Source: Solea solea (Eukaryota > Chordata > Actinopteri > Pleuronectiformes > Soleidae). Taken from it: DNA of 64,000 nucleotides. A program made the position numbers and the translations under genes. Under the pieces are notes generated by a model. It searched no databases and was not told the origin of the DNA. It was given only the letters and a program-made list of their open reading frames with translations. Location: NCBI RefSeq assembly GCF_958295425.1, contig NC_081149.1, positions 558,001-622,000 on the forward strand, in the 5' to 3' direction. Below are positions 1-64,000 of this stretch, piece by piece; the first letter of the stretch is position 1, and each line of letters begins with the position of its first letter.

Positions 1-2230
1 GACCTTTTCCGAAAGTTGCACAGGTCTGAAACTCGGCAACCGTGATAAGCTTTAGTCCCTGATACACATACGGAAAAATCAGACTCCTGACTCAATGCCT
101 TTAGGAATTATTACAATAAACACACCTAAACGGCTGACCTTTGACCTTTCCGAAGGTTACACAGGTCTGAAACTCGGCACCCTAGATTAGCCTTAGTCCC
201 TGATACACATACGGAAAAATCAGACTCCTGGCTCAATGCCTTTAGGAATTATTACAAAAAACACACCACAGCGGCTGACCTTTGACCTTTCCGAAGGTTG
301 CACAGGTCTGAAACTCGGCACCCTGGATCAGCCTTAGTCCCTGATACACACACGGAAAAATCAGACTCCTGGCTCAATGCCTTTAGGAATTATTACAAAA
401 AACACACCCGAACGGCTGACCTTTGACCTTTCCAAAGCTTGCACGGGTCTGAAACTCGGCACCCTGGATTAGCCTTAGTCCCTGATACACATACGGAAAA
501 ATCAGACTCCTGGCTTAATGCCTTTAGGAATTATTACAAAAAACACACCCGAACGGCTGACCATTGACCTTTTCCGAAAGTTGCACAGGTCTGAAACTCG
601 GCAACCGTGATAAGCTTTAGTCCCTGATACACATACGGAAAAATCAGACTCCTGACTCAATGCCTTTAGGAATTATTACAATAAACACACCTAAACGGCT
701 GACCTTTGACCTTTCCGAAGGTTACACAGGTCTGAAACTCGGCACCCTAGATTAGCCTTAGTCCCTGATACACATACGGAAAAATCAGACTCCTGGCTCA
801 ATGCCTTTAGGAATTATTACAAAAAACACACCACAGCGGCTGACCTTTGACCTTTCCGAAGGTTGCACAGGTCTGAAACTCGGCACCCTGGATCAGCCTT
901 AGTCCCTGATACACACACGGAAAAATCAGACTCCTGGCTCAATGCCTTTAGGAATTATTACAAAAAACACACCCGAACGGCTGACCTTTGACCTTTCCAA
1001 AGCTTGCACGGGTCTGAAACTCGGCACCCTGGATTAGCCTTAGTCCCTGATACACATACGGAAAAATCAGACTCCTGGCTTAATGCCTTTAGGAATTATT
1101 ACAAAAAACACACCCGAACGGCTGACCATTGACCTTTTCCGAAAGTTGCACAGGTCTGAAACTCGGCAACCGTGATAAGCTTTAGTCCCTGATACACATA
1201 CGGAAAAATCAGACTCCTGACTCAATGCCTTTAGGAATTATTACAATAAACACACCTAAACGGCTGACCTTTGACCTTTCCGAAGGTTACACAGGTCTGA
1301 AACTCGGCACCCTAGATTAGCCTTAGTCCCTGATACACATACGGAAAAATCAGACTCCTGGCTTAATGCCTTTAGGAATTATTACAAAAAACACACCCGA
1401 ACGGCTGACCATTGACCTTTCCGAAGGTTGCACAGGTCTGAAACTCGGCAACCGGGATCAGCCTTAGTCCCTGATACACACACGGAAAAATCAGACTCCT
1501 GGCTCAATGCCTTTAGGAATTATTACAAAAAACACACCCGAACGGCTGACTTTTGACCTTTCCAAAGCTTGCACGGGTCTGAAACTCGGCACCCTGGATT
1601 AGCCTTAGTCCCTGATACACATACGGAAAAATCAGACTCCTGGCTTAATGCCTTTAGGAATTATTACAAAAAACACACCCGAACGGCTGACCATTGACCT
1701 TTTCCGAAAGTTGCACAGGTCTGAAACTCGGCAACCGTGATAAGCTTTAGTCCCTGATACACATACGGAAAAATCAGACTCCTGACTCAATGCCTTTAGG
1801 AATTATTACAATAAACACACCTAAACGGCTGACCTTTGACCTTTCCGAAGGTTACACAGGTCTGAAACTCGGCACCCTAGATTAGCCTTAGTCCCTGATA
1901 CACATACGGAAAAATCAGACTCCTGGCTTAATGCCTTTAGGAATTATTACAAAAAACACACCCGAACGGCTGACCATTGACCTTTCCGAAGGTTGCACAG
2001 GTCTGAAACTCGGCACCCTGGATCAGCCTTAGTCCCTATACACACACGGAAAAATCAGACTCCTGGCTCAATGCCTTTAGGAATTATTACAAAAAACACA
2101 CCACAGCGGCTGACCTTTGACCTTTCCAAAGGTTGCACGGGTCTGAAACTCGGCACCCTGGATCAGCCAGGAGTCCCTGATACACATACGGAGAAATCAG
2201 CATCCGGGCTCATTGCCTTTAGGAATTATT
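1..2230 (+). repeat. Satellite A array with 565 bp higher-order repeat
   Basis: Tandem 141 bp monomers, recognised by the recurring TTAGGAATTATTAC block at 101, 242, 383, 524 and 666. Four monomers plus one base form a higher-order unit of 565 bp: the variant monomer beginning GACCTTTTCCGAAAG recurs at 1, 566, 1131 and 1696. The first two units look identical; the third and fourth differ in their middle monomers. Each monomer holds a TGACC(T/A)TTGACCT motif, a DR1-type nuclear-receptor element. Most monomers here carry an in-frame stop (GATTAGCCTTAG or GATAAGCTTTAG contexts), so no long ORF forms. The array continues off the left edge of the window and ends where TTAGGAATTATT runs into the C linker. 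Confidence 0.95.
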
Positions 2231-2477
2231 GAAGAAAAGACAGTTTCCCACCTTTCTTACGTTTGAATTTTACAGACTGTGTTTTTGGCAGTATTTGGCC
2301 CGGGGGAAAAAAGCCCAAAGTCCTGTGTCCAAAAACTGAAAATCAGGTCATGTCAGACTCTATACAGTCTTAGACTCTTTGGCCAGAGTGGAAGTTTTGG
2401 AGGGACTACATTTCTACAGGTCGCAGGAGTGTGAATATTTCATATGTCGTTTGGGGTCCCAAGACGAGCGGAACGAC
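2231..2477 (+). repeat. C linker, full length, between A and B
   Basis: A 247 bp non-tandem segment that begins where A's TTAGGAATTATT changes from ACAAAAAACACACC to GAAGAAAAGACAG, and ends at GGAACGAC before the first B monomer. The same segment recurs 18 more times in the window at every A-to-B transition. This copy has the CAGTATTTGGCCCGGGGG variant, shared with the linkers at 31617, 47758 and 61547, whereas most copies read CAGTTTTTTTTGGCCAGGGGG. I see no coding potential. Confidence 0.9.
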
Positions 2478-2922
2478 GAGGGTACATTAGTATATCTTAT
2501 AAGATGTTAACTTTATTTGTGAGGTTTATGTTATGGGACAGTAGAAAAATGAAAAAAAATCAGAAAACAGTCGTATTCCAGCTGAATGCGCACAAAAACA
2601 GACAAAAATAGAAAAACACATTTAAACAGTGAAATCATTGCAAAATCAAACACTGAAGGTATATAACTATATCTTATAAGATGTTAACTTTATTTGTGAG
2701 TTTTATGTTATGGGACAGTAGAAACAGTTTCAGACCCGTGCAACCTTTGGAAAGGTCAAAGGTCAGCCGTTCGGGTGTGTCTGAATGCGCACAAAAACAG
2801 ACACAAATATAAAAACACATCCGAACAGTGAAATCATTATAAATTCAAACACTGAGGGTACATCAATATACCTTATAAGATGTTAACTTCATATTATAGG
2901 ACAGTAGAAAAAAGATTAAAAT
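2478..2922 (+). repeat. Satellite B block, 445 bp, with inverted A insert
   Basis: About two and a half 176 bp B monomers (CTTATAAGATGTTAAC, then GGTTTATGTTATGGGACAGTAG, then AAAACACATCCAAACAG). The second monomer has an internal piece replaced by an inverted A fragment (2726-2780). The block ends at the standard B-to-A junction, GATTAAAAT followed by ACCCT-N-GATCAGCC of A. Confidence 0.9.
2726..2780 (-). repeat. Inverted satellite A fragment inside a B monomer
   Basis: Fifty-five bases read as the reverse complement of A, from ACACACCCGAACGG through the DR1 motif to GGTCTGAAACT. They replace about 31 bases of the host B monomer, between ACAGTAGAAAC and CTGAATGCGC. The plus strand here shows AAAGGTCAAAGGTCA, so the DR1 element is present in the opposite orientation. 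Identical inserts lie at 48253-48307 and 62042-62096, so one event was later copied by block duplication. Confidence 0.9.
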
Positions 2923-3016: not shown

Positions 3017-3833
3017 ATCAGAGCAGACATCCCCCCCATTCTCCCCTGCACATCGGAGGAACAGCGGTGGAAGTGGTCTCCAGCTTCAGGTACCTGGGCG
3101 TGCATCTCAAGGACGACCTCACCTGGAGCAGCAACACTTCCAGCCTGGTCCGGAAGGCACACCAGCGCCTCTACTTCCTCAGGAGGCTGAGACGCGCTGG
3201 ACTAGGAAGGTCAGCCCTTATCACCTTCTACAGATGTGTAGTGGAGAGTGTCCTGTGCTCCTGCATCACTGTGTGGCACGGCAGCTGCTCTGCAGCAGAG
3301 TGGTGAAAGCTGCACAGAGAACCGTGGGCAGCAGCCTCCCCACCATCACGGACATCTTCACCTCCAGATGCCCTGGGCTACCTGCATCATGAGAGATCCC
3401 ACTCACCCGGCACACACACTGTTCACCCCCCTCCCCTCAGGCAGGAGGCTACGGAGCATCAAGAGCAGCACTACGAGACTGAGGAACAGCTTCTTCCCTG
3501 GAGCTGTCAGACTCCTTAACTCTCTGTAACCCCATAGCCCTGCTGCCCCCACCCCCCACGTACTGTACTTTGCACATGCCTCCAGTACCGTACACACCCT
3601 TGCACCAAATTCTTTTTTGCACAGCACCTTACCTCCAGAGGTTTAAAGTTTTGATCTCTTTTAATTTATATTTTGTTAAGTTAAACTGTTGGTTCTTATT
3701 TCTTATTTTCTTATTCTTCTTATTGCTGGGCCGACCGGGTTCTGGAGAGACTGATTTTCGTTCTGACCTCATGTCTAATGTGTGTTAGTATGACAATGAA
3801 GAAATCTTGAATCTTGAATCTTGAATCTTGAAT
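3017..3833 (+). mobile_element. L2/CR1-group LINE, 5'-truncated 3' end, copy 1
   Basis: An 817 bp GC-richer insert in an A monomer. It encodes the C-terminal end of a non-LTR retrotransposon ORF2: FRYLGVHLKDDLTW and the LRRLRRAGL region up to a stop at 3304-3306, then in another frame LPSGRRLRSIKSSTTRLRNS up to a stop at 3529. Such motifs close the reverse-transcriptase ORF of L2/CR1/Jockey-group LINEs common in fish. The 3' end is a short tandem repeat of ATCTTGA (about 3803-3834), as typical for this group in place of a poly(A) tail. The flanking 6 bp CTAAAC repeats suggest a short target-site duplication, although the last base is shared with the terminal repeat. The frame changes and stops make it non-functional. 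Exact family is not certain. Confidence 0.85.
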
Positions 3834-4763
3834 CTAAACGGCTGACCTTTGACCTTTCCGAAGGTTACACAGGTCTGAAACTCGGCACCCTAGATTAGCC
3901 TTAGTCCCTGATACACATACGGAAAAATCAGACTCCTGGCTCAATGCCTTTAGGAATTATTACAAAAAACACACCCGAACGGCTGACCATTGACCTTTCC
4001 GAAGGTTACACAGGTCTGAAACTCTGCATCCGGGATAAGCCTAAATCCCTGATACACATACGGAAAAATCAGACTCCTGGCTCAATGCCTTTAGGAATTA
4101 TTACAAAAAACACACCCGAACGGCTGACCATTGACCTTTCCGAAGGTTGCACAGGCCTGAAACTCTGCACCCGGGATAAGCCTAAATCCCTGATACACAT
4201 ACGGAAAAATCAGACTCCTGGCTCAATGCCTTTAGGAATTATTACAAAAAACACACCCGAACGGCTGACCATTGACCTTTCCGAAGGTTGCACAGGTCTG
4301 AAACTCGGCAACCGGGATAAGCTTTAGTCCCTGATACACATACGGAGAAAACAGACTCCTGACTCAATGCCTTTAGGAATTATTACAAAAAACACACCCG
4401 AACGGCTGACCATTGACCTTTCCGAAGGTTACACAGGTCTGAAACTCTGCATCCGGGATAAGCCTAAATCCCTGATACACATACGGAAAAATCAGACTCC
4501 TGGCTCAATGCCTTTAGGAATTATTACAAAAAACACACCTGAACGGCTGACCATTGACCTTTCCGAAGGTTGCACAGTTCTGAAACTCTGCACCGGGGAT
4601 AAGCCTAAATCCCTGATACACATACGGAAAGATCAGACTCCTGACTCAATGCCTTTAGGAATTATTACAAAAAACACACCGGAACGGCTGACCATTGACC
4701 TTTCCGAAGGTTGCACAGGCCTGAAACTCTGCACCCGGGATAAGCCTAAATCCCTGATACACA
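3834..4763 (+). repeat. Satellite A array, open-frame subfamily
   Basis: About 6.6 monomers of 141 bp. Many carry the variant CCATTGACC plus CCGGGATAAGCCTAAATCCC, which lacks the stop codons found in other A monomers. The plus-strand frame is therefore open at 3944-4327 and 4367-4864, reading a 47-residue repeat (for example PLGIITKNTPERLTIDLSEG). The second ORF runs on into the adjacent LINE. The array is cut at 4763 within CTGATACACA by the LINE. I treat the ORFs as consequences of the 141 bp period, not as genes. Confidence 0.9.
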
Positions 4764-4767
4764 GGTC

Positions 4768-5279: not shown

Positions 5280-5302
5280 ATACATTCTTAAATAATATTG
5301 AT

Positions 5303-6859: not shown

Positions 6860-7574
6860 AACAGAACGAACTCATACCTATGTCAGTGGATAATAAGATC
6901 CTGGAAACGTGGCACCAGAAAGGGATTCATCATTTGGAGGACTGTTATAAGGATGGATGCCTGATGTCTTTTGAGGATCTAAGGAGGAAATATGATCTGT
7001 CCAGTAGAAACTTTTTTTGTTATTTACAGTTAAGATCATTTCTTAAATCTGTTTTGGGATCTGAAATGACTTTACCCATGCTCAGCGATCTGGAAAAACT
7101 GCTTCAGGAGGGTAACGCACCCCGTCTTATTGCAAAAGTCTACTCCCTCTTGATGGATGATGCTCCAAAACCAGGTTTACATAAATCAAGGGAGAAATGG
7201 GAGTCTGACTTGGGTGTGACAATGGGTACAGAGCTCTGGGCTGAATTGTGTCAAAAAAGTCTAACTGCCACTCTTAATTCTAGATACAGGCTGACTTATT
7301 ATAACTTTCTTCATCAAACCTATCTTACGCCACAGAAATTACATAAATATAAACCTGAGATATCCAACCTGTGCTTTAGATGTAGTATAGAAGAGGGTTT
7401 ATTCCTACACTGCACTTGGTTATGCACAAAACTTAACACATTCTGGCATGATTTCTCTGGCATCATGACAAAACTCCTAGGACTACATCTCCCATTAGAT
7501 CCTCAAACCTGCTTATTAGGAGATACTACAAATATTAATGCACGATTAAGAAAAGCTCAAAAGAGGTTCCTCTC
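6856..7574 (+). pseudogene. LINE ORF2 C-terminal region with Cys/His motif
   Basis: About 239 codons continuing the same ORF2 after a frameshift that overlaps the previous stop. It ends with a Cys/His segment, CFRCSIEEGLFLHCTW, matching the C-terminal CX2C...HX-type motif of L1/Tx1 ORF2, followed by LNTFWHDF. Satellite A begins at 7575, so the final residues up to 7578 are read partly from satellite. The 3' UTR is absent. Confidence 0.85.
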
Positions 7575-8345
7575 TTAGCCTTAGTCCCTGATGCACATAC
7601 GGAAAAATCAGACTCCTGGCTCAATGCCTTTAGGAATTATTACAAAAAAAACACCCGAACGGCTGACCATTGACCTTTCCGAGGGTTGCACAGGTCTGAA
7701 ACTCGGCAACCTGGATAAGCTTTAGTCCCTGATACACATACGGAAAAATCAGACTCCTGGCTTAAGGCCTTTAGGAATTATTACAAAAAACACACCCGAA
7801 AGGCTGACCTTTGACCTTTCCAAAGGTTGCACGGGTCTGAAACTTGGCACCCTGGATAAGCCTTAGTCCCTGATACAGATACGGAAAAATCAGACCACTG
7901 GCTGAATGCCTTTAGGAATTATTACAAAAAAACACCCGAACGGCTGACCATTGACCTTTCCGAAGGTTGCACGGGTCTGAAACTCTGCACCGGGGATAAG
8001 CCTAAATCCCTGATACACATACGGAAAGATCAGACTCCTGACTCAATGCCTTTAGGAATTATTACAAAAAACACACCCGAACGGCTGACCATTGACCTTT
8101 CCGAAGGTTGCACAGGCCTGAAACTCTGCACCCGGGATAAGCCTAAATCCCTGATACACATACGGAAAAATCAGACTCCTGGCTCAATGCCTTTAGGAAT
8201 TATTACAAAAAACACACCCGAACGGCTGACCATTGACCTTTCCCAAGGTTGCACAGGTCTGAAACTCGGCACCCGGGATAAGCCTAAATCCCTGATACAC
8301 ATACGGAAAAATCAGACTCCTGGCTCAATGCCTTTAGGAATTATT
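7575..8345 (+). repeat. Satellite A array after the LINE
   Basis: About 5.5 monomers. The first ones are more diverged than elsewhere (TGATGCACATAC, GCTTAAGGCC, CAGACCACTGGCTGAATGCC). The last ones belong to the open-frame subfamily, giving an ORF at 8046-8381 that runs into the C linker. DR1 motifs are present in the CCATTGACC form and once in the CCTTTGACC form. Confidence 0.9.
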
Positions 8346-8489
8346 GAAGAAAAGACAGTTTCCCACCTTTCTTACGTTTGAATTTTACAGACTGTGTTTT
8401 TGGCAGTTTTTTTTGGCCGGGGGAAAAAAGCCCAAAGTCCTGTATCCAAAAACTGAAAATCAGGTCATGTCAGACTCTATACAGTCTTA

Positions 8490-9114: not shown

Positions 9115-9209
9115 TTAGACCCTTTTGGCCAGAGTGAAAGAGGAACTACAGGTCGCAGGAGTGTGAATATTTCATATGTCGTTTGGGGTCCCAAGACGAG
9201 CGGAACGAC

Positions 9210-12200
9210 GATGGTACATTAGTATATCTTATAAGATGTTAACTTTATTTGTGAGGTTTATGTTATGGGACAGTAGAAAATGAAAAAAAATCAGAAAACA
9301 GCCTTATCTCAGCTGAATGCGAACACAAACAGACACTTGTAGAAAAACACATCCAAACAGTGAAATCATTGCAAAATCAAACAGTGAGTGTACAGAACTA
9401 AATATTTTAAGATGTTAACTTCATTTGTGAGGTTTATGTTATGGGACAGCAGAAAAATTAAAAAAATCCGGAAACAGCCTTATCTCAGCTGAATGCGCAC
9501 ACAAACAGACACTTGTAGAAAAACACATCCCAACAGTGAAATATTTGCATAATTAAACACTGAGGGTAAAGCAGTATATCTTATAAGATGTTAAGTTCAT
9601 TTGTTAGGTTTATATTATGGGAAAGTAGAAAAATGAAAAAAATCCGATAACAGCCTTATCTCAGCTGTATGCGCACACAAACAGACACCAATAGAAAAAC
9701 ACATCCAAACAGTGAAATCAATGCAAAATCAAACAGTGAGTGTACAGAACTAAATATTTTAATATGTTAACTTCATTTGTGAGGTTTATGTTATGGGACA
9801 GCAGAAAAATTAAAAAAATCCGGAAACAGCCTTATCTCAGCTGAATGCGCACACAAAACAGACACCAATAGAAAAACACATCCAAACAGTGAAATCAATG
9901 CAAAATGAAACAGTAAGTGTACAGAACTAAATCTTTTAAGATGTTAACTTCATTTGTGAGGTTTATGTTATGGGACAGCAGAAAAATTAAAAAAATCCGG
10001 AAACAGCCTTATCTCAGCTGAATGCGCACACAAACAGACACTTGTAGAAAAACACATCCCAACAGTGAAATCATTGCAAAATCAAACACTGAGGGTACAG
10101 AACTAAATATTTTAAGATGTTAACTTCATTTGTGAGGTTTATGTTATGGGACAGCAGAAAAATGAAAAAAATCCGGAAACAGCCTTATCTCAGCTGTATG
10201 CGCACACAAACAGACACCAATAGAAAAACACATCCAAACAGTGAAATCATTGCAAAATCAAACACTGAGGTTACAGAAGTATATCTTATAAGATGTTAAG
10301 TTCATTTGTGAGGTTTATGTTATGGGACAGCAGAAAAATGAAAAAAATCCGTAAACAGCCTTATCTCAGCTGAATGCGCACACAAACAGACACTTGTAGA
10401 AAAACACATCCCAACAGTGAAATCATTGCAAAATCAAACACTGAGGGAACAGAACTAAATCTTTTAAGATGTTAACTTCATTTGTGAGGTTTATGTTATG
10501 GGACAGCAGAAAAATGAAAAAAATCCGGAAACAGCCTTATCTCAGCTGAATGCGCACACAAACAGACACCAATAGAAAAACACATCCAAACAGTGAAATC
10601 ATTGGAAAATCAAACAGTGAGTGTACAGAACTAAATCTTTTAAGATGTTAACTTCATTTGTGAGGTTTATGTTATGGGACAGCAGAAAAATTAAAAAAAT
10701 CCGTAAACAGCCTTATCTCAGCTGAATGCGCACACAAACAGACACCAATAGAAAAACACATCCAAACAGTGAAATCATTGCAAAATCAAACAGTGAGTGT
10801 ACAGAACTAAATCTTTTAAGATGTTAACTTCATTTGTGAGGTTTATGTTATGGGACAGCAGAAAAATTAAAAAAATCCGTAAACAGCCTTATCTCAGCTG
10901 AATGCGCACACAAACAAACACCAATAGAAAAACACATCCAAACAGTGAAATCATTGCAAAATCAAACAGTGAGTGTACAGAACTAAATCTTTTAAGATGT
11001 TAACTTCATTTGTGAGGTTTATGTTATGGGACAGCAGAAAAATTAAAAAAATCCGTAAACAGCCTTATCTCAGCTGAATGCGCACACAAACAGACACTTG
11101 TAGAAAAACACATCCAAACAGTGAAATCTTTGCAAAATTAAACACTGAGGGTAAAGAAGTATATCTTATAAGATGTTAAGTTCATTTGTTAGGTTTATAT
11201 TATGGTAAAGTAGAAAAATGAAAAAAATCCGAAAACAGCCTTATCTCAGCTGTATGCGCACACAAACAGACACCAATAGAAAAACACATCCAAACAGTGA
11301 AATCAATGCAAAATGAAACAGTAAGTGTACAGAACTAAATCTTTTAAGATGTTAACTTCATTTGTGAGGTTTATGTTATGGGACAGCAGAAAAATTAAAA
11401 AAATCCGGAAACAGCCTTATCTCAGCTGAATGCGCACACAAACAGACACTTGTAGAAAAACACATCCCAACAGTGAAATCATTGCAAAATCAAACACTGA
11501 GGGTACAGAACTAAATATTTTAAGATGTTAACTTCATTTGTGAGGTTTATGTTATGGGACAGCAGAAAAATGAAAAAAATCCGGAAACAGCCTTATCTCA
11601 GCTGTATGCGCACACAAACAGACACCAATAGAAAAACACATCCAAACAGTGAAATCATTGCAAAATCAAACACTGAGGTTACAGAAGTATATCTTATAAG
11701 ATGTTAAGTTCATTTGTGAGGTTTATGTTATGGGACAGCAGAAAAATGAAAAAAATCCGTAAACAGCCTTATCTCAGCTGAATGCGCACACAAACAAACA
11801 CCAATAGAAAAACACATCCAAACAGTGAAATCATTGCAAAATCAAACAGTGAGTGTACAGAACTAAATCTTTTAAGATGTTAACTTCATTTGTGAGGTTT
11901 ATGTTATGGGACAGCAGAAAAATTAAAAAAATCCGTAAACAGCCTTATCTCAGCTGAATGCGCACACAAACAGACACTTGTAGAAAAACACATCCAAACA
12001 GTGAAATCTTTGCAAAATTAAACACTGAGGGTAAAGAAGTATATCTTATAAGATGTTAAGTTCATTTGTTAGGTTTATATTATGGTAAAGTAGAAAAATG
12101 AAAAAAATCCGAAAACAGCCTTATCTCAGCTGTATGCGCACACAAACAGACACCAATAGAAAAACACATCCAAACAGTGAAATCAATGCAAAATGAAACA

Positions 12201-21200: not shown

Positions 21201-21925
21201 CTTTTAAGATGTTAATTTCATTTGTGAGGTTTATGTTATGGGAGAGCAGAAAAATTAAAAAAATCCGTAAACAGCCTTATCTCAGCTGAATGCGCACACA
21301 AACAGACACTTGTAGAAAAACACATCCAAACAGTGAAATCTTTGCAAAATTAAACACTGAGGGTAAAGAAGTATATCTTATAAGATGTTAAGTTCATTTG
21401 TTAGGTTTATATTATGGGAAAGTAGAAAAATGAAAAAAATCCGAAAACAGCCTTAACTCAGCTGAATGCGCACACAAACAGACACTTGTAGAAAAACACA
21501 TCCAAACAGTGAAATCATTGCAAAATCAAACACTGAGGGTACAGAACTAAATCTTTTAAGATGTTAACTTCATTTGTGAGGTTTATGTTATGGGACAGCA
21601 GAAAAATGAAAAAAATCCGTAAACAGCCTTATCTCAGCTGAATGCGCACACAAACAGACACCAATAGAAAAACACATCCCAACAGTTAAATCTTTGCAAA
21701 ATCAAACAGTGAGTGTACAGAACTAAATCTTTTAAGATGTGAACTTCATTTGTGAGGTTTATATTATGGGACAGCAGAAAAATTTAAAAAAATCCGGAAA
21801 CAGCCATATCTCAGCAGAATGCGCTTACAAACAGACACCAATAGAAAAACACATCCGTGAAATCATTGCAAAATCAAACACTGAGAGTACAGAAGTATAT
21901 CTTATAAGATGTACATTTCATTTGT
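9210..21925 (+). repeat. Long satellite B array, about 72 monomers, 880/1408 bp higher-order repeat
   Basis: About 12.7 kb of head-to-tail 176 bp monomers. A distinctive monomer (open over 60 codons, starting at ATGTTAACTTC) recurs at 10117, 11525, 12405, 13813, 14693, 15573, 16453, 17861 and 18741, at spacings of 880 (5 x 176) or 1408 (8 x 176) bp; a further copy with one base change lies 1408 bp later, near 20149. Central copies are nearly identical, while monomers near both edges (9210-9900 and 21400-21925) are more diverged. Monomers contain GTTAAC, and some contain the palindrome ATCTTATAAGAT. Because 176 is not a multiple of 3, ORFs stay near 60 codons and are not genes. Confidence 0.95.
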
Positions 21926-22140
21926 TCAGTTAACTGTATGGTTATTTGTCATAATCAAACTTCAAAAAAATATTTCTACAACAAATGTTGCTTTCACAGC
22001 ACACATTATTGTTGTAATCATATCATTATTATTAATATTATTATTATTATCGCTGTTAATATTATTATTGTTATCATCACCATCATTATATTTATATCAT
22101 TAATACATTGACATTATATTAACATAAAAAAACAAAAACT
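21926..22140. repeat. AT-rich border with ATT/ATC microsatellite
   Basis: The B array decays after CTTATAAGATGTACATTTC, and an AT-rich segment follows. From about 22008 to 22105 it is a degenerate ATT/TTATTA trinucleotide repeat. No gene is visible. Confidence 0.8.
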
Positions 22141-25710: not shown

Positions 25711-25735
25711 TATGGTGTGGGTTTGTCGTGATTTT

Positions 25736-51400: not shown

Positions 51401-51481
51401 AATTCAAACACTGAGGGTACATCAATATACCTTATAAGATGTTAACTTCATATTATAGGACAGTAGAAAAAAGATTAAAAT
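48450..51481 (+). repeat. Composite unit carrying LINE copy 2
   Basis: A 48450-48543, LINE 48544-49359, A 49360-50193 (open-frame subfamily at 49611-50195), C' 50194-50352, A 50353-50807, C 50808-51057, B 51058-51481. The junction of the two large duplicated blocks lies in the A segment near 50093-50101. Confidence 0.9.
48544..49359 (+). mobile_element. L2/CR1-group LINE 3' fragment, copy 2
   Basis: The same fragment in the same A-monomer position with the same CTAAAC flanks (48538-48543 and 49360-49365) and the same stops as at 3017-3833. It is one base shorter in a C run near its start. Sharing of site, truncation point and defects shows it was copied with its flanks, not inserted again. 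Confidence 0.9.
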
Positions 51482-53484
51482 ACCCTCGATCAGCCTTAGT
51501 CCCTGATACACATACGGAAAAATCAGACTCCTGGCTTAATGCCTTTAGGAATTATTACAAAAAACACACCTAAACGGCTGACCTTTGACCTTTCCGAAGG
51601 TTACACAGGTCTGAAACTCGGCACCCTAGATCTGAAACTCGGCACCCTGGATAAGCCTTAGTCCCTGATACACATACAGAAAAATCAGACTCCTGGCTAA
51701 ATGCCTTTAGGAATTATTACAAAAAACACACCCGAACGGCTGACCATTGACCTTTTTCGAAAGTTGCACAGGTCTGAAACTCGGCAACCGGGATAAGCTT
51801 TAGTCCCTGATACACATACGGAAAAATCAGACTCCTGACTCAATGCCTTTAGGAATTATTACAAAAAATACACCACAGTGGCTGACCTTTGACCTTTCCA
51901 AAGGTTGCACAGATCTGAAACTCAGCACCCTGGATCAGCCAGGAGTCCCTGATACACATACGGAGAAATCAGCATCCGGGCTCATTGCCTTTAGGAATTA
52001 TTGAAGAAAAGACAGTTTCCCACCTTTCTTACGTTTGAATTTTACAGACTGTGTTTTTGGCAGTTTTTTTTGGCCAGGGGGAAAAAAGCCCAAAGTCCTG
52101 TGTCCAAAACTGAAAATCAGGTCAGATCAGACTCTATACAGTCTTAGACTCTTTGGCCAGACTCCTGGCTTAATGCCTTTAGGAATTATTACAAAAAACA
52201 CACCCGAACGGCTGACCTTTGACCTTTCCAAAGGTTGCACGGGTCTGAAACTCGGCACCCTGGATTAGCCTTAGTCCCTGATACACATACAGAAAAATCA
52301 GACTCCTGGCTTAATGCCTTTAGGAATTATTACAAAAAACACACCCGAACGGCTAACCATTGACCTTTTCCGAAAGTTGCACAGGTCTGAAACTCGGCAA
52401 CCGGGATAAGCTTTAATCCCTGATACACATACGGAGAAATCAGCATCCGGGCTCATTGCCTTTAGGAATTATTGAAGAAAAGACAGTTTCCCACCTTTCT
52501 TACATTTGAATTTTACAGACTGTGTTTTTGGCAGTTTTTGTTGGCCAGGGGGAAAAAAGCCCACAGTCCTGTGTCCAAAAACTGAAGACTCTATACAGTC
52601 TTAGACTCTTTGGCCAGAGTGGAAGTTTTGGAGGAACTACATTTCTACAGGTCGCAGGAGTGTGAATATTTCATATGTCGTTTGGGGTCCCAAGACGAGC
52701 GGAACGACGAGGGTACTTAGTATATCTTATAAGATGTTAACTTAATTTGTGAGGTTTATGTTATGGGACAGTAGAAAAATGAAAAAAAATCAGAAAACAG
52801 TCGTATTCCAGCTGAATGCGCACAAAAACAGACAAAAATAGAAAAACACATTCAAACAGTGAAATCATTGCAAAATCAAACACTGAAGGTATATAACAAT
52901 ATCTTATAAGATGTTAACTTTATTTCTGAGGTTTATGTTATGGGACAGTAGAAAAATGAAAAAAAATCAGAAAACAGTCGTATTCCAGCTGAATGCGCAC
53001 AAAAACAGACAAAAATAGAAAAACACATTCAAACAGTGAAATCATTGCAAAATCAAACACTGAAGGTATATAACTATATTTTATAAGATTTTAACTTTAT
53101 TTGTGAGGTTTATGTTATGGGACAGTAGAAAAATGAAAAAAAATCAGAAAACAGTCGTATTCCAGCTGAATGCGCACAAAAACAGACAAAAATAGAAAAA
53201 CACATTCAAACAGTGAGATCATTGCAAAATCAAACACTGAAGGTATATAACTATATCTTATGAGATGTTAACTTTATTTGTGAGGTTTATGTTATGGGAC
53301 AATAAAAAAATGAAAAAACATCAGAAAACAGCCGTTTCCCTGCTGAATGCACACAAAAACAGAGACAAATAGAAAAACACATCCAAACAGTGAAATCATT
53401 ATAAATTCAAACACTGAGGGTACATCAATATACCTTATAAGATGTTAACTTCATATTATAGGACAGTAGAAAAAAGATTAAAAT
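51482..53484 (+). repeat. Composite unit: A, C', A, C, B
   Basis: A 51482-52002, C' 52003-52160, A 52161-52473, C 52474-52708, B 52709-53484. A copy of the unit at 40819-42821, offset 10663, with the same 21 bp slip in A and the same short linker. Confidence 0.9.
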
Positions 53485-56187
53485 ACCCTCGATCAGCCTT
53501 AGTCCCTGATACACATACGGAAAAATCAGACTCCTGGCTTAATGCCTTTAGGAATTATTACAAAAAACACACCTAAACGGTTGACCTTTGACCTTTCCGA
53601 AGGTTACACAGGTCTGAAACTCGGCACCCTAGATTAGCCTTAGTCCCTGATACACATACGGAAAAATCAGACTCCTGGCTGGATGCCTTTATGAATTATT
53701 ACAAAAAACACACCCGAACGGCTGACCATTGACCTTTCCGAAGGTTGCACAGGTCTGAAACTCGGCACCCTGGATCAGCCTTAGTCCCTATACACACACG
53801 GAAAAATCAGACTCCTGGCTCAATGCCTTTAGGAATTATTACAAAAAACACACCACAGCGGCTGACCTTTGACCTTTCCAAAGGTTGCACAGGTCTGAAA
53901 CTCGGCACCCTAGATCAGCCTTAGTCCCTGATACACACACGGAAAAATCAGACTCCTGGCTCAATGCCTTTAGGAATTATTACAAAAAACACACCCGAAC
54001 GGCTGACCTTTGACCTTTCCAAAGGTTGCACGGGTCTGAAACTCGACACCCTGGATTAGCCTTAGTCCCTGATACACATACGGAAAAATCAGACTCCTGG
54101 CTTAATGCCTTTAGGAATTATTACAAAAAACACACCCGAACGGCTGACCTTTGACCTTTCCAAAGGTTGCACGGGTCTGAAACTCGGCACCCTGGATTAG
54201 CCTTAGTCCCTGATACACATACAGAAAAATCAGACTCCTGGCTAAATGCCTTTAGGAATTATTACAAAAAACACACCCGAATGGCTAACCATTGACCTTT
54301 TTCGAAAGTTGCACAGGTCTGAAACTCGGCAACCGGGATAAGCTTTAGTCCCTGATACACATACGGAAAAATCAGACTCCTGACTCAATGCCTTTAGGAA
54401 TTATTACAAAAAATACACCACCGTGGCTGACCTTTGACCTTTCCAAAGGTTGCACAGATCTGAAACTCAGCACCCTGGATCAGCCAGGAGTCCCTGATAC
54501 ACATACGGAGAAATCAGCATCCGGGCTCATTGCCTTTAGGAATTTTTGAAGAAAAGACAGTTTCCCACCTTTCTTACGTTTGAATTTTACAGACTGTGTT
54601 TTTGGCAGTTTTTTTTGGCCAGGGGGAAAAAAGCCCAAAGTCCTGTGTCCAAAAACTGAAAATCAGGTCATGTCAGACTCTATACAGTCTTAGACTCTTT
54701 GGCCAGACTCCTGGCTTAATGCCTTTAGGAATTATTACAAAAAACACACCTGAACGGCTGACCTTTGACCTTTCCGAAGGTTGCACGGGTCTGAAACTCG
54801 GCACCCTGGATTAGCCTTAGTCCCTGATACACATACAGAAAAATCAGACTCCTGGCTTAATGCCTTTAGGAATTATTACAAAAAACACACCCGAACGGCT
54901 AACCATTGACCTTTTCCGAAAGTTGCACAGGTCTGAAACTCGGCAACCGGGATAAGCTTTAGTCCCTGATACACATACAGAAAAATCAGACTCCTGACTC
55001 AATGCCTTTAGGAATTATTACAAAAAATACACCACAGTGGCTGACCTTTGACCTTTCCAAAGGTTGCACAGATCTGAAACTCAGCACCCTGGATCAGCCA
55101 GGAGTCCCTGATACACATACGGAGAAATCAGCATCCGGGCTCATTGCCTTTAGGAATTATTGAAGAAAAGACAGTTTCCCACCTTTCTTACGTTTGAATT
55201 TTACAGACTGTGTTTTTGGCAGTTTTTTTTGGCCAGGGGGAAAAAAGCCCAAAGTCCTGTGTCCAAAACTGAAAATCAGGTCATGTCAGACTCTATACAG
55301 TCTTAGACTCTTTGGCCAGAGTGGAAGTTTTGGAGGAACTACATTTCTACAGGTCGCAGGAGTGTGAATATTTCATATGTCGTTTGGGGTCCCAAGACGA
55401 GCGGAACGACGAGGGTACATTAGTATATCTTATAAGATGTTAACTTTATTTGTGAGGTTTATGTTATGGGACAGTAGAAAATGAAAAAAAATCAGAAAAC
55501 AGTCGTATTCCAGCTGAATGCGCACAAAAACAGACACAAATAGAAAAACACATCCAAACAGTGAAACTATTGCAAAATCAAACACTGAGGGTACCGAAGA
55601 ATATCTTATAAGATGTTAACTTTATTTGTGAGGTTTATGTTATGGGACAATAGAAAAATGAAAAAAAAATCAGAAAACAGTCGTATTCCAGCTTACTGCA
55701 AACAAAAACAGACAAAAATAGAAAAACACATTCAAACAGTGAAATCATTGCAAAATCAAACACTGAAGGTATATAACTATATCTTATAAGATGTTAAATT
55801 TATTTGTGAGGTTTATGTTATGGGACAGTAGAAAAATGAAAAAAAATCAGAAAACAGCCGTATCCCTGCTGAATGCACACAAAAACAGAGACAAATAGAA
55901 AAACACATCCAAACAGTGAAATCATTGCAAAATCAAACACTGAAGGTATATAACTATATCTTATAAGATTTTAACTTTATTTGTGAGGTTTATGTTATGG
56001 GACAGTAGAAAAATGAAAAAAATTGCGAAAACAGCCGTATCCCTGCTGAATGCGCACAAAAACAGACACAAATAGAAAAACACATCCAAACAGTAAAATC
56101 ATTATAAATTCAAACACTGAGGGTACATCAATATACCTTATAAGATGTTAACTTCATATTATAGGACAGTAGAAAAAAGATTAAAAT
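53485..56187 (+). repeat. Composite unit: A, C', A, C, B (mostly extra DNA)
   Basis: A 53485-54547 (1063 bp, the longest uninterrupted A run between linkers apart from the left-edge array), C' 54548-54706, A 54707-55161, C 55162-55410, B 55411-56187 (777 bp). After about 53600 it has no counterpart at the expected place in block copy 1. Confidence 0.9.
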
Positions 56188-57803
56188 ACCCTCGATCAGC
56201 CTTAGTCCCTGATACACATACGGAAAAATCAGACTCCTGGCTTAATGCCTTTAGGAATTATTACAAAAAACACACCTAAACGGCTGACCTTTGACCTTTC
56301 CGAAGGTTACACAGGTCTGAAACTCGGCACCCTAGATTAGCCTTAGTCCCTGATACACATACGGAAAAATCAGACTCCTGGCTCAATGCCTTTAGGAATT
56401 ATTACAAAAAACACACCCGAACGGCTGACCATTGACCTTTCCGAAGGTTGCACAGGTCTGAAACTCGGCACCCTGGATCAGCCTTAGTCCCTGATACACA
56501 CACGGAAAAATCAGACACCTGGCTCAATGCCTTTAGGAATTATTACAAAAAACACACCCGAACGGCTGACCTTTGACCTTTCCAAAGCTTGCACGGGTCT
56601 GAAACTTGGCACCCTGGATTAGCCTTAGTCCCTGATACACATACGGAAAAATCAGACTCCTGGCTTAATGCCTTTAGGAATTATTACAAAAAACACACCC
56701 GAACGGCTGACCATTGACCTTTTCCGAAAGTTGCACAGGTCTGAAACTCGGCAACCGGGATAAGCTTTAGTCCCTGATACACATACGGAAAAATCAGACT
56801 CCTGACTCAATGCCTTTAGGAATTATTACAAAAAACACACCACAGCGGCTGACCTTTGACCTTTCCAAAGGTTGCACGGGTCTGAAACTCGGCACCCTGG
56901 ATCAGCCAGGAGTCCCTGATACACATACGGAGAAATCAGCATCCGGGCTCATTGCCTTTAGGAATTATTGAAGAAAAGACAGTTTCCCACCTTTCTTACA
57001 TTTGAATTTTACAGACTGTGTTTTTGGCAGTTTTTTTTGGCCAGGGGGAAAAAAGCCCACAGTTCTGTGTCCAAAAACTGAAGACTCTATACAGTCTTAG
57101 ACTCTTTGGCCAGAGTGGAAGTTTTGGAGGAACTACATTTCTACAGGTCGCAGGAGTGTGAATATTTCATATGTCGTTTGGGGTCCCAAGACGAGCGGAA
57201 CGACGAAGGTACATTAGTATATCTTATAAGATGTTAACTTTATTTGTGAGGTTTATGTTATGGGACAGTAGAAAAATGAAAAAAAATCAGAAAACAGTCG
57301 TATTCCAGCTGAATGCGCACAAAAACAGACAAAAATAGAAAAACACATTCAAACAGTGAAATCATTGCAAAATCAAACACTGAAGGTATATAACTATATC
57401 TTATGAGATGTTAACTTTATTTGTGAGGTTTATGTTATGGGACAATAAAAAAATGAATAAAATCAGAAAACAGCCGTATCCCTGCTGAATGCACACAAAA
57501 ACAGAGACAAATAGAAAAACACATCCAAACAGTGAAATCATTGCAAAATCAAACACTGAAGGTATATAACTATATCTTATAAGATTTTAACTTTATTTGT
57601 GAGGTTTATGTTATGGGAGAGTAGAAAAATGAAAAAAATTGCGAAAACAGCCGTATCCCTGCTGAATGCGCACAAAAACAGACACAAATAGAAAAACACA
57701 TCCAAACAGTGAAATCAATATAAATTTAAACACTGAGGGTACATCAATATACCTTATAAGATGTTAACTTCATATTATAGGACAGTAGAAAAAAGATTAA
57801 AAT
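56188..57803 (+). repeat. Composite unit: A, C, B
   Basis: A 56188-56969 (782 bp), C 56970-57204 (short variant), B 57205-57803 (599 bp). C and B copy 43463-44296 at offset 13507. Confidence 0.9.
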
Positions 57804-59747
57804 ACCCTCGATCAGCCTTAGTCCCTGATACACATACGGAAAAATCAGACTCCTGGCTTAATGCCTTTAGGAATTATTACAAAAAACACACCACAGCGGC
57901 TGACCTTTGACCTTTCCAAAGGTTGCACGGGTCTGAAACTCGACACCCTGGATTAGCCTTAGTCCCTGATACACATACGGAAAAATCAGACTCCTGGCTT
58001 AATGCCTTTAGGAATTATTACAAAAAACACACCCGAACGGCTGACCTTTGACCTTTCCAAAGGTTGCACGGGTCTGAAACTCGGCACCCTGGATTAGCCT
58101 TAGTCCCTGATACACATACAGAAAAATCAGACTCCTGGCTAAATGCCTTTAGGAATTATTACAAAAAACACACCCGAACGGCTGACCATTGACCTTTCCG
58201 AAAGTTGCACAGGTCTGAAACTCGGCAACCGGGATAAGCTTTAGTCCCTGATACACATACGGAAAAATCAGACTCCTGACTCAATGCCTTTAGGAATTAT
58301 TACAAAAAATACACCACAGTGGCTGACCTTTGACCTTTCCAAAGGTTGCACAGATCTGAAACTCAGCACCCTGGATCAGCCAGGAGTCCCTGATACACAT
58401 ACGGAGAAATCAGCATCCGGGCTCATTGCCTTTAGGAATTATTGAAGAAAAGACAGTTTCCCACCTTTCTTATGTTTGAATTTTACAGACTGTGTTTTTG
58501 GCAGTTTTTTTTGGCCAGGGGGAAAAAAGCCCAAAGTCCTGTGTCCAAAACTGAAAATCAGGTCATGTCAGACTCTATACAGTCTTAGACTCTTTGGCCA
58601 GACTCCTGGCTTAATGCCTTTAGGAATTATTACAAAAAACACACCCGAACGGCTGACCTTTGACCTTTCCAAAGGTTGCACGGGTCTGAAACTCGGCACC
58701 CTGGATTAGCCTTAGTCCCTGATACACATACAGAAAAATCAGACTCCTGGCTTAATGCCTTTAGGAATTATTACAAAAAACACACCCGAACGGCTAACCA
58801 TTGACCTTTTCCGAAAGTTGCACAGGTCTGAAACTCGGCAACCGGGATAAGCTTTAGTCCCTGATACACATACGGAGAAATCAGCATCCGGGCTCATTGC
58901 CTTTAGGAATTATTGAAGAAAAGACAGTTTCCCACCTTTCTTACGTTTGAATTTTACAGACTGTGTTTTTGGCAGTTTTTTTTGGCCAGGGGGAAAAAAG
59001 CCCACAGTCCTGTGTCCAAAAACTGAAGACTCTATACAGTCTTAGACTCTTTGGCCAGAGTGGAAGTTTTGGAGGAACTACATTTCTACAGGTCGCAGGA
59101 GTGTGAATATTTCATATGTCGTTTGGGGTCCCAAGACGAGCGGAACGACGAGGGTACTTAGTATATCTTATAAGATGTTAACTTTATTTGTGAGGTTTAT
59201 GTTATGGGACAGTAGAAAAATGAAAGAAAATCAGAAAACAGTCGTATTCCAGCTGAATGCGCACAAAAACAGACAAAAATAGAAAAACACATTCAAACAG
59301 TGAAATCATTGCAAAATCAAACACTGAAGGTATATAACAATATCTTATAAGATGTTAACTTTATTTCTGAGGTTTATGTTATGGGACAGTAGAAAAATGA
59401 AAAGAAATCAGAAAACAGTCGTATTCCAGCTGAATGCGCACAAAAACAGACAAAAATAGAAAAACACATTCAAACAGTGAAATCATTGCAAAATCAAACA
59501 CTGAAGGTATATAACTATATCTTATGAGATGTTAACTTTATTTGTGAGGTTTATGTTATGGGACAATAAAAAAATGAATAAAATCAGTAAACAGCCGTAA
59601 CCCTGCTGAATGCACACAAAAACAGAGACAAATAGAAAAACACATCCAAACAGTGAAATCATTATAAATTCAAACACTGAGGGTACATCAATATACCTTA
59701 TAAGATGTTAACTTCATATTATAGGACAGTAGAAAAAAGATTAAAAT
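57804..59747 (+). repeat. Composite unit: A, C', A, C, B
   Basis: A 57804-58443, C' 58444-58601, A 58602-58914, C 58915-59149, B 59150-59747. A copy of 44297-46240 at offset 13507. Confidence 0.9.
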
Positions 59748-62238
59748 ACCCTCGATCAGCCTTAGTCCCTGATACACATACGGAAAAATCAGACTCCTGG
59801 CTTAATGCCTTTAGGAATTATTACAAAAAACACACCACAGCGGCTGACCTTTGACCTTTCCAAAGGTTGCACGGGTCTGAAACTCGACACCCTGGATTAG
59901 CCTTAGTCCCTGATACACATACGGAAAAATCAGACTCCTGGCTTAATGCCTTTAGGAATTATTACAAAAAACACACCCGAACGGCTGACCTTTGACCTTT
60001 CCAAAGGTTGCACGGGTCTGAAACTCGGCACCCTGGATTAGCCTTAGTCCCTGATACACATACAGAAAAATCAGACTCCTGGCTAAATGCCTTTAGGAAT
60101 TATTACAAAAAACACACCCGAACGGCTGACCATTGACCTTTCCGAAAGTTGCACAGGTCTGAAACTCGGCAACCGGGATAAGCTTTAGTCCCTGATACAC
60201 ATACGGAAAAATCAGACTCCTGACTCAATGCCTTTAGGAATTATTACAAAAAATACACCACAGTGGCTGACCTTTGACCTTTCCAAAGGTTGCACAGATC
60301 TGAAACTCAGCACCCTGGATCAGCCAGGAGTCCCTGATACACATACGGAGAAATCAGCATCCGGGCTCATTGCCTTTAGGAATTATTGAAGAAAAGATAG
60401 TTTCCCACCTTTCTTACGTTTGAATTTTACAGACTGTGTTTTTGGCAGTTTTTTTTGGCCAGGGGGAAAAAAGCCCAAAGTCCTGTGTCCAAAACTGAAA
60501 ATCAGGTCATGTCAGACTCTATACAGTCTTAGACTCTTTGGCCAGACTCCTGGCTTAATGCCTTTAGGAATTATTACAAAAAACACACCCGAACGGCTGA
60601 CCTTTGACCTTTCCAAAGGTTGCACGGGTCTGAAACTTGGCACCCTGGATTAGCCTTAGTCCCTGATACACATACGGAAAAATCAGACTCCTGGCTTAAT
60701 GCCTTTAGGAATTATTACAAAAAACACACCCAAATGGCTGACCTTTGACCTTTCCAAAGGTTGCACGGGTCTTAAACTCGGCACCCTAGATACACATACG
60801 GAAAAATCAGACTTCTGGCTTAATGCCTTTAGGAATTATTACAAAAAACACACCCGAACGGCTGACCTTTGACCTTTCCGAAGGTTGCACAGGTCTGAAA
60901 CTCGGCACCCTAGATCAGCCTTAGTCCCTGATACACACACGGAAAAATCAGACTCCTGGCTCAATGCCTTTAGGAATTATTACAAAAAACACACCCGAAC
61001 GGCTGACCTTTGACTTTTCCAAAGGTTGCACGGGTCTGAAACTCGACACCCTGGATCAGCCTTAGTCCCTGATACACATACGGAAAAATCAGACTCCTGG
61101 CTTAATGCCTTTAGGGATTATTACAAAAAACACACCTAAACGGCTGACCTTTGACCTTTCCAAGGTTACACAGGTCTGAAACTCGGCACCCTAGATTAGC
61201 CTTAGTCCCTGATACACATACGGAAAAATCAGACTACTGGCTCAATGCCTTTAGGAATTATTACAAAAAACACACCCGAACGGCTAACCATTGACCTTTT
61301 CCGAAAGTTGCACAGGTCTGAAACTCGGCAACCGGGATAAGCTTTAGTCCCTGATACACATACGGAAAAATCAGACTCCTGACTCAATGCCTTTAGGAAT
61401 TATTACAAAAAATACACCACAGTGGCTGACCTTTGACCTTTCCAAAGGTTGCACAGATCTGAAACTCAGCACCCTGGATCAGCCAGGAGTCCCTGATACA
61501 CATACGGAGAAATCAGCATCCGGGCTCATTGCCTTTAGGAATTATTGAAGAAAAGACAGTTTCCCACCTTTCTTACGTTTGAATTTTACAGACTGTGTTT
61601 TTGGCAGTATTTGGCCCGGGGGAAAAAAGCCCAAAGTCCTGTGTCCAAAAACTGAAAATCAGGTCATGTCAGACTCTATACAGTCTTAGACTCTTTGGCC
61701 AGAGTGGAAGTTTTGGAGGGACTACATTTCTACAGGTCGCAGGAGTGTGAATATTTCATATGTCGTTTGGGGTCCCAAGACGAGCGGAACGACGAGGGTA
61801 CATTAGTATATCTTATAAGATGTTAACTTTATTTGTGAGGTTTATGTTATGGGACAGTAGAAAATGGAAAAAAAATCAGAAAACAGTCGTATTCCAGCTG
61901 AATGCGCACAAAAACAGACAAAAATAGAAAAACACATTTAAACAGTGAAATCATTGCAAAATCAAACACTGAAGGTATATAACTATATCTTATAAGATGT
62001 TAACTTTATTTGTGAGTTTTATGTTATGGGACAGTAGAAACAGTTTCAGACCCGTGCAACCTTTGGAAAGGTCAAAGGTCAGCCGTTCGGGTGTGTCTGA
62101 ATGCGCACAAAAACAGACACAAATATAAAAACACATCCGAACAGTGAAATCATTATAAATTCAAACACTGAGGGTACATCAATATACCTTATAAGATGTT
62201 AACTTCATATTATAGGACAGTAGAAAAAAGATTAAAAT
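59748..62238 (+). repeat. Composite unit: A, C', A, C, B
   Basis: A 59748-60387, C' 60388-60545, A 60546-61546 (1001 bp, two monomers more than the counterpart at 47039-47757), C 61547-61793, B 61794-62238 (445 bp, with inverted A insert). Confidence 0.9.
62042..62096 (-). repeat. Inverted satellite A fragment inside B, copy 3
   Basis: Same 55 bp insert and junctions as at 2726 and 48253. Confidence 0.9.
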
Positions 62239-64000
62239 ACCCTCGATCAGCCTTAGTCCCTGATACACATACGGAAAAATCAGACTCCTGGCTTAATGCC
62301 TTTAGGAATTATTACAAAAAACACACCTAAACATCAGAGCAGACATCCCCCCCATTCTCCCCTGCACATCGGAGGAACAGCGGTGGAAGTGGTCTCCAGC
62401 TTCAGGTACCTGGGCGTGCATCTCAAGGACGACCTCACCTGGAGCAGCAACACTTCCAGCCTGGTCCGGAAGGCACACCAGCGCCTCTACTTCCTCAGGA
62501 GGCTGAGACGCGCTGGACTAGGAAGGTCAGCCCTTATCACCTTCTACAGATGTGTAGTGGAGAGTGTCCTGTGCTCCTGCATCACTGTGTGGCACGGCAG
62601 CTGCTCTGCAGCAGAGTGGTGAAAGCTGCACAGAGAACCGTGGGCAGCAGCCTCCCCACCATCACGGACATCTTCACCTCCAGATGCCCTGGGCTACCTG
62701 CATCATGAGAGATCCCACTCACCCGGCACACACACTGTTCACCCCCCTCCCCTCAGGCAGGAGGCTACGGAGCATCAAGAGCAGCACTACGAGACTGAGG
62801 AACAGCTTCTTCCCTGGAGCTGTCAGACTCCTTAACTCTCTGTAACCCCATAGCCCTGCTGCCCCCACCCCCCACGTACTGTACTTTGCACATGCCTCCA
62901 GTACCGTACACACCCTTGCACCAAATTCTTTTTTGCACAGCACCTTACCTCCAGAGGTTTAAAGTTTTGATCTCTTTTAATTTATATTTTGTTAAGTTAA
63001 ACTGTTGGTTCTTATTTCTTATTTTCTTATTCTTCTTATTGCTGGGCCGACCGGGTTCTGGAGAGACTGATTTTCGTTCTGACCTCATGTCTAATGTGTG
63101 TTAGTATGACAATGAAGAAATCTTGAATCTTGAATCTTGAATCTTGAATCTAAACGGCTGACCTTTGACCTTTCCGAAGGTTACACAGGTCTGAAACTCA
63201 GCACCCTAGATTAGCCTTAGTCCCTGATACACATACGGAAAAATCAGACTCCTGGCTCAATGCCTTTAGGAATTATTACAAAAAACACACCCGAATGGCT
63301 GACCATTGACCTTTCCGAAGGTTGCACAGGTCTGAAACTCGGCTACCGGGATAATCTTTAGTCCCTGATACACATACGGAAAGATCAGACTCCTGACTCA
63401 ATGCCTTTAGGAATTATTACAAAAAACACACCCGAACGGCTGACCATTGACCTTTCCGAAGGTTGCACAGGCCTGAAACTCTGCACCCGGGATAAGCCTA
63501 AATCCCTGTTACACATACGGAAAAATCAGACTCCTGGCTCAATGCCTTTAGGAATTATTACAAAAAACACACCCGAACGGCTGACCATTGACCTTTCCGA
63601 AGGTTGCACAGGTCTGAAACTCGCCAACCGGGATAAGCTTTAGTCCCTGATACACATACGGAGAAAACAGACTCCTGACTCAATGCCTTTAGGAATTATT
63701 ACAAAAAACACACCCGAACGGCTGACCATTGACCTTTCCGAAGGTTACACAGGTCTGAAACTCTGCATCCGGGATAAGCCTAAATCCCTGATACACATAC
63801 GGAAAAATCAGACTCCTGGCTCAATGCCTTTAGGAATTATTACAAAAAACACACCCGAACGGCTGACCATTGACCTTTCCGAAGGTTGCACAGGCCTGAA
63901 ACTCTGCACCCGGGATAAGCCTAAATCCCTGATACACATACGGAAAAATCAGACTCCTGGCTCAATGCCTTTAGGAATTATTACAAAAAACACACCCGAA
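62239..64000 (+). repeat. Composite unit carrying LINE copy 3, cut by window end
   Basis: A 62239-62332, LINE 62333-63149, A 63150-64000 continuing off the right edge. The A monomers include the open-frame subfamily (open at 63401-63643 and again from 63683 toward the edge). Confidence 0.9.
62333..63149 (+). mobile_element. L2/CR1-group LINE 3' fragment, copy 3
   Basis: Same 817 bp fragment, CTAAAC flanks (62327-62332 and 63150-63155) and internal stops as the copy at 3017-3833. Part of block duplication copy 2. Confidence 0.9.

What the first reader, a model, noticed from the sequence alone, without database searches (positions are those of the whole stretch)
1..64000. Every 141 bp A monomer carries a DR1 nuclear-receptor element
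Seen: most A monomers contain TGACCTTTGACCT, whose reverse complement is AGGTCAAAGGTCA, a perfect direct repeat of AGGTCA with one-base spacing. Most of the rest have TGACCATTGACCT (AGGTCAATGGTCA). A minority read TAACCATTGACC and lose one half-site. Known: DR1 elements are bound by RXR heterodimers and homodimers, PPAR-RXR, HNF4 and COUP-TF. Inference: about 150 A monomers make this locus a very dense platform for such receptors, which could act as a decoy, seed satellite transcription or recruit repressors. I know of no described satellite with this property.
Basis: partly seen in the sequence, partly recalled or inferred. Interest (0 to 1): 0.75.

Follow-up and report, generated by a model that had tools for sequence, protein, structure and literature searches.

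The report
Pericentromeric satellite carrying receptor-binding-like motif
A tandem repeat that appears to lie near the centromeres of what looks like a fish genome carries a textbook DNA-binding motif for hormone-type nuclear receptors in a bit over half of the copies in this stretch, but the motif is not clearly kept more carefully than the rest of the repeat, so it is probably an inherited accident that receptors could bind only if that DNA is ever open.

Summary
The motif is real, but "every monomer" is too strong. In the window 137 A copies span the slot: 80 have the perfect DR1 AGGTCAAAGGTCA, 40 AGGTCAATGGTCA, 15 AGGTCAATGGTTA and 2 other forms; chance gives about 0.01 per window. The copies are tandem relatives, so 80 hits are one founder event, apparently a 7-bp duplication (TGACCTT)2. 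Genome-wide the A-type 17-mer occurs 8,632 times, against 11,528 perfect DR1s and 159 for the reversed control.

The satellite looks pericentromeric: A/B lies at one end of seven large contigs whose other end is telomeric, and internally on C1 and C2.

Over 153 distinct monomers half-sites are 95.4% conserved against 94.2% elsewhere; 39% of random column sets do as well. Tree counts (6% of random sets) and C1 alone (2.2%) lean the other way. The upstream half-site is near-invariant, but an A-rich block is firmer.

Best reading: a hitch-hiking, latent receptor site. A second, unrelated satellite near contig ends also carries the perfect DR1 and merits a binding assay.

The parts
1..2242 (+). 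A satellite array (141-bp monomers, 17 hits, 9 perfect DR1s); a 565-bp (4-monomer) recurrence is visible, e.g. DR1 at 135, 700, 1265, 1830
135..147 (-). first perfect DR1, AGGTCAAAGGTCA on the minus strand; one of 80 in the window (77 on -, 3 on +)
2726..2782 (-). inverted A fragment with DR1 (2753-2765, reading on +) embedded in a B run; same arrangement at 48253-48309 and 62042-62098
3833..4763 (+). A array, 1 perfect DR1 (3843), the other copies read mostly AGGTCAATGGTCA
7571..8357 (+). A array resuming after a LINE insertion, 1 perfect DR1 (7805)
9204..21925 (+). B satellite array (176 bp, 73 hits), no perfect DR1
29875..63999 (+). composite region of alternating short A arrays, linkers, short B arrays and 30-bp B/A junctions; holds 68 of the 80 perfect DR1s
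30246..30477 (+). example of the A-to-B linker (232 bp)

Best explanation
A is one of two intermixed satellites (A 141 bp, B 176 bp) of a probably pericentromeric or centromeric block. Its DR1 is a feature of the founder monomer, probably made by a 7-bp tandem duplication (TGACCTT)2, that was multiplied passively by unequal exchange and higher-order amplification. Shown: the motif, its counts, the position on the contigs sampled, and the lack of clear extra conservation of the two-half-site unit. Inferred: in native chromatin most copies are packed away and bound little; where the array opens, COUP-TF/RXR-class receptors (better fitted than HNF4) would occupy it opportunistically, chiefly through the intact upstream half-site, without the motif having been selected for that.
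For: Half-sites 0.954 vs rest 0.942 over 153 distinct monomers from 5 contigs; 39% of random 12-column sets and 55 of 141 slid masks are at least as conserved. Window alone: 0.947 vs 0.943, the DR1 13-mer ranking 57 of 129. On C35 35 of 80 distinct monomers keep the perfect site and 35 have the weaker TGACCATTGACCT form, which is itself amplified (4,169 17-mer copies genome-wide). The firmest 13-base windows centre on TTATTACAAAAAA, not DR1. The site is an exact 7-mer tandem repeat, the only adjacent duplication of 6-8 bases found in the consensus. Position.
Against: Counting changes on a tree, half-sites change less (1.33 vs 2.75 per column; 6% of random sets; 24 of 141 slid masks). On C1 half-sites are 0.980 vs 0.923 (2.2% of random sets; 13 of 141 slid masks). 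A perfect DR1 in a 141-bp unit is rare by chance (10 of 200,000 shuffles), and a second unrelated satellite has one too.
Confidence: 0.7

Rival explanations
1. The DR1 is a maintained docking site: COUP-TF/TR4/RXR-class receptors bind A arrays and recruit co-repressors (NuRD-type) to seed pericentromeric heterochromatin, as proposed for variant telomere repeats.
For: Consensus COUP-TF2/RXR site; COUP-TF-type domain present; orphan receptors on TCAGGG repeats recruit ZNF827-NuRD and TRIM28 and raise H3K9me3 in human cells; C1 conservation and tree counts; same DR1 in a satellite near contig ends.
Against: No extra column conservation on C35, C2 or C26; 57 of 137 window copies lack the perfect site; much of the block is B without DR1: samples at C35:100001 and 200001, C26:50001, C32:200001 and C40:200001 are B alone, C31:200001 is mixed. 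No binding data. TRIM28 may be absent from fishes (recalled).
Confidence: 0.12
2. Only the single upstream half-site matters (AAAGGTCAA, an extended half-site of the kind used by monomer-binding receptors or in half-site mode); the second half-site is dispensable.
For: Upstream half-site 0.993 conserved, 147 of 153 distinct monomers intact, downstream 0.915; receptors, including PPARgamma:RXR on the 5' half, can bind in half-site mode (PMC6555819 passages).
Against: Another block of the monomer with no known role is as conserved or more (positions 29-46).
Confidence: 0.1
3. The arrays act as a receptor decoy, titrating receptors from genes.
For: A-type 17-mers make up 8,632 of 11,528 (75%) perfect DR1s in the genome, enough sites to matter if accessible.
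Against: Requires open chromatin at these arrays, which could not be tested; no clear sign of selection.
Confidence: 0.05

Closest known systems
TCAGGG variant telomere repeats bound by NR2C/NR2F receptors (COUP-TF1/2, TR2, TR4, EAR2) in ALT cells (PMC13187458: abstract and introduction; PMC7691514: passages; PMC11194075: search listing only)
   Same: Tandem repeat with receptor half-sites, possible recruitment of chromatin modifiers at a chromosome landmark
   Different: 6-bp telomere repeats in human ALT cells with reported binding, whose direct role PMC7691514 doubts; here a 141-bp satellite, one DR1 slot per monomer, no binding data
Human satellite III / HSF1 and mouse pericentromere / GFI1B, TRIM28, SALL1 and Pax3-9 (PMC4363358: passages; Bulut-Karslioglu 2012 seen only in its reference list)
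   Same: Pericentromeric satellite reported to be bound by, or to depend on, transcription factors
   Different: Different factor classes; binding reported there, only predicted here
Consensus DR1 (DR1cons) as crystallised with HNF4 and RAR/RXR (PMC10315846: passages)
   Same: Identical 13 bases AGGTCAAAGGTCA in 80 of 137 copies
   Different: Regulatory DR1s are usually single sites (recalled); the review calls DR1cons unnatural, and HNF4 prefers CAAAGTCCA

Membership tests
DR1 nuclear-receptor element | two RGGTCA half-sites, one-base spacer, A preferred | tested here: met
   80 of 137 slot-spanning copies perfect; 40 with TGGTCA as second half-site, 15 TGGTTA, 2 other. A-spacer preference:
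DR1 nuclear-receptor element | receptor occupancy | not testable with these tools
   no ChIP data held
DR1 nuclear-receptor element | half-sites more conserved than surroundings | tested here: inconclusive
   not met by column identity (0.954 vs 0.942; 39% of random sets); lean towards it by tree counts (6%) and on C1 (2.2%)
HNF4-specific binding motif | xxxxCAAAGTCCA | tested here: not met
   CAAAGTCCA has 0 matches on either strand of the window (motif)
pericentromeric/centromeric satellite | long tandem arrays, block at the non-telomeric end of acrocentric contigs or internal | tested here: met
   A or B at one end of C26, C28, C31, C32, C35, C36, C40, telomere repeats at the other end in 7 of 7; internal on C1 (from 22.94 Mb of 47.06) and C2 (from 14.45 Mb of 40.0) in capped lists. 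22 starts and 20 ends sampled; the remaining ends showed no A/B. No cytology or CENP-A data
CENP-B-box satellite | NTTCGNNNNANNCGGGN (pattern recalled) | tested here: not met
   0 matches in the window
nuclear-receptor-bound tandem repeat of the ALT kind | direct receptor binding and recruitment of chromatin modifiers | not testable with these tools
   no binding data

The most novel reading that the evidence does not exclude
In this genome orphan nuclear receptors (COUP-TF/TR4/RXR class) are general marker proteins of constitutive heterochromatin: two unrelated satellites, pericentromeric A and a subtelomeric ~1.1-kb repeat, have each acquired the same perfect DR1 and use it to recruit chromatin modifiers in normal cells, a germline version of what ALT telomeres do.
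Probability: 0.07. Interest if true: 0.8.

Novelty: new member of a known kind. Interest (0 to 1): 0.33.

Why it matters
If receptors bind A, about three quarters or more of the genome's perfect DR1 sites would sit in one satellite, so any DR1 receptor study in this lineage would have to account for them, and receptor supply could couple to heterochromatin. If they do not, it is a natural case of a strong motif in a satellite without function, a caution for motif scans in repeats. One CUT&RUN experiment would decide occupancy.

Tried and rejected
CENP-B-like box: none in the window. Protein-coding reading of the 141-bp unit: no frame of the A consensus stays open across monomers (longest stretch 46 codons). 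RNA families: none at gathering score in the window. B satellite as receptor platform: no DR1 in its consensus. Homology of A with the 1.1-kb satellite: exact match of only 14 bases, the motif plus one. Extra conservation of the DR1 inside that satellite: six copies, all fetched because they hold the motif (biased, and with ends of unequal length); 173 of 888 windows, itself included, do as well or better. A published description of this satellite or of a receptor element in one: term searches listed none that I recognised as such; these are narrow searches of one library, read as listings only. Species not identified. Not obtained: genome-wide count of the TAACCATT form and a whole-genome list of diverged A copies (not completed).

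Rows dropped: conservation used only near-full monomers (at least 130 model positions) and one of each identical sequence: 292 full of 410 hits, 153 distinct. Three sequences shared between C35 and C26 or C31 are counted under C26 or C31; C31 (5 rows) was too small to report alone; C32 and C40 samples gave no A. The three outermost columns on either side were left out of the random sets. L003-L008 were used but left out as overlapping L002 or L055. One search's A/B scan failed on an input error and was redone.

Full report
What is there. The window is G000:C35:558001-622000 of a 642-Mb, 211-contig genome. It looks like a fish (my reading of the receptor set and repeats; species not identified). 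A monomers (141-142 bp) form arrays that alternate with a second satellite B (176 bp) through recurring junctions: A_n, a linker of usually 217-234 bp, B_n, a 30-bp junction, A_n; plus A_n to A_n joints of 143-145 bp. Retroelement and MITE-like pieces interrupt it.

The motif. TGACCTTTGACCT occurs 80 times, 0.01 expected. Of 197 A hits, 137 span the slot: 80 AGGTCAAAGGTCA, 40 AGGTCAATGGTCA, 15 AGGTCAATGGTTA, 1 AGGTCAAAAGTCA, 1 AAGTCAAAGGTCA; no strict DR1 lies outside A in the window. These are not 80 independent events, since monomers are copies. The fairer null is one monomer: 10 of 200,000 dinucleotide shuffles of the A consensus have a strict DR1, 195 a relaxed one, and 1,664 (0.8%) some DR0-5/IR/ER arrangement. 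The site is an exact 7-bp tandem duplication, TGACCTT TGACCTT, the only adjacent duplication of 6-8 bases found in the consensus.

Genome-wide. The A-type 17-mer TGACCTTTGACCTTTCC occurs 4,434 + 4,198 = 8,632 times, reversed control 0. The form with the weaker second half-site, TGACCATTGACCTTTCC, occurs 2,545 + 1,624 = 4,169 times, control 0. Perfect AGGTCAAAGGTCA: 5,815 + 5,713 = 11,528, reversed control 82 + 77 = 159. On C1 between 64 kb and 22.9 Mb I count 42 listed sites in 22.8 Mb, 1.8 per Mb, against 1,250 per Mb in the window; only six of the 42 were looked at in sequence (L001, L052-L054). That background is itself about seven times the reversed control (0.25 per Mb), so DR1 is not rare in this genome even outside A.

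Position. C35 begins inside B arrays; A or B is present in samples up to 0.80 Mb and absent at 1.0 Mb, with one sample at 0.50 Mb that holds neither. I sampled 22 contig starts and 20 ends. A or B lies at one end of C26, C28, C31, C32, C35, C36 and C40, and telomere repeats at the other end in 7 of 7. The remaining sampled ends showed no A/B; the starts of C25, C33 and C38 read N. On C1 (47 Mb) and C2 (40 Mb) it is internal, from 22.94 and 14.45 Mb, in lists that were capped. This is the layout of a centromeric or pericentromeric block on acrocentric and bi-armed chromosomes (inference). Much of the block is B: C35:100001 and 200001, C26:50001, C32:200001 and C40:200001 are B alone.

In the window, 63 distinct monomers: half-sites 0.947, rest 0.943, DR1 13-mer rank 57 of 129. 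Over C35, C1, C2, C26 and C31, 292 full monomers, 153 distinct: half-sites 0.954, rest 0.942; 39% of random 12-column sets and 55 of 141 slid masks as good. By contig: C35 (80) 0.951 vs 0.946; C2 (24) 0.948 vs 0.953; C26 (6) 0.972 vs 0.971; C1 (38) 0.980 vs 0.923, 2.2% of random sets, 13 of 141 slid masks. Parsimony changes: 1.33 vs 2.75 per column, 6% of random sets, 24 of 141 slid masks; DR1 window rank 19 of 123. The upstream half-site is 0.993 (147 of 153 intact), the downstream one 0.915. The firmest block is around TTATTACAAAAAA. So the two-half-site unit is at best weakly favoured; on C35 its weaker form is as common among distinct monomers as the perfect one (35 and 35 of 80). The C1 result is the best sign the other way and was not resolved.

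Which receptors. HNF4, RXR and COUP-TF2 bind DR1; HNF4 strictly prefers CAAAGTCCA, and the consensus DR1 is called unnatural (PMC10315846, passages). COUP-TF/EAR are assigned DR1 (PMC10345098, passages). An A spacer is preferred, and binding through one half-site is common (PMC6555819, passages). So COUP-TF/RXR fit best. The genome has 128 matches to the receptor zinc-finger family, counted exon by exon; L009 matches COUP-TF1 best and the L028 exon HNF4-alpha best. L010-L012 and L034 look like further COUP-TF relatives by eye.

Second satellite. At the start of C1 an unrelated 1,120-bp tandem repeat has one perfect DR1 per unit seen. A 24-mer from it occurs 63 times: 59 within about 51 kb of an end of C1, C2, C28, C29, C30 or C38, and 4 on C192; the nearby ends of C28 and C29 carry telomere repeats. 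Its exact match with A is 14 bases, the motif plus one base. By the C1 background a 1.1-kb unit would hold a DR1 about 0.2% of the time (my arithmetic); since genomes hold many satellite families and I found it by looking for DR1, this is suggestive only.

Known precedents. Orphan receptors bind TCAGGG variant telomere repeats in ALT cells and recruit ZNF827-NuRD and TRIM28, raising H3K9me3 (PMC13187458, abstract and introduction). Another study finds the role indirect and some telomeres without sites (PMC7691514, passages). HSF1 and other factors bind pericentromeric satellites (PMC4363358, passages). So receptor-bound tandem repeats and factor-bound satellites are known kinds; my narrow searches showed no described DR1-bearing pericentromeric satellite.

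Verdict. I favour a hitch-hiking, latent site (0.7).

Noticed in passing
C1:1-51000 (L051), also near ends of C2, C28, C29, C30, C38 (L109-L113): Satellite near contig ends, copies spaced mostly 1,050-1,124 bp (2,334 on C38), unrelated to A, with a perfect DR1 in each copy fetched; the copies were found by that motif
   Followed up: partly
L054 (C1:1616701-1617000): AGGTCACAGTGACCT, a perfect palindrome with 3-base spacer (the estrogen-response-element arrangement, recalled), overlapping TGACCTTTGACC; two near copies 58 bp apart. Whether it is a dispersed repeat was not tested
   Followed up: no
window 2726-2782, 48253-48309, 62042-62098: Inverted A fragment inside a B run, same 57-bp model span at three places, suggesting large duplicated higher-order units
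   Followed up: partly
window 4764-7570: LINE with reverse transcriptase (RVT_1, E 2.9e-35) inserted in the A array; two open frames meet near 6856. Its sequence recurs in part at C35:500001 (L044)
   Followed up: partly
window 8497-9116: GC-rich insert with inverted-repeat-like ends inside an A/B linker, MITE-like by eye
   Followed up: no
window 21930-29490: Mostly non-satellite DNA (with a short inverted B piece at 29166-29391) holding exon-like stretches on the minus strand (23860-23990, 24380-24570); gene not identified
   Followed up: no
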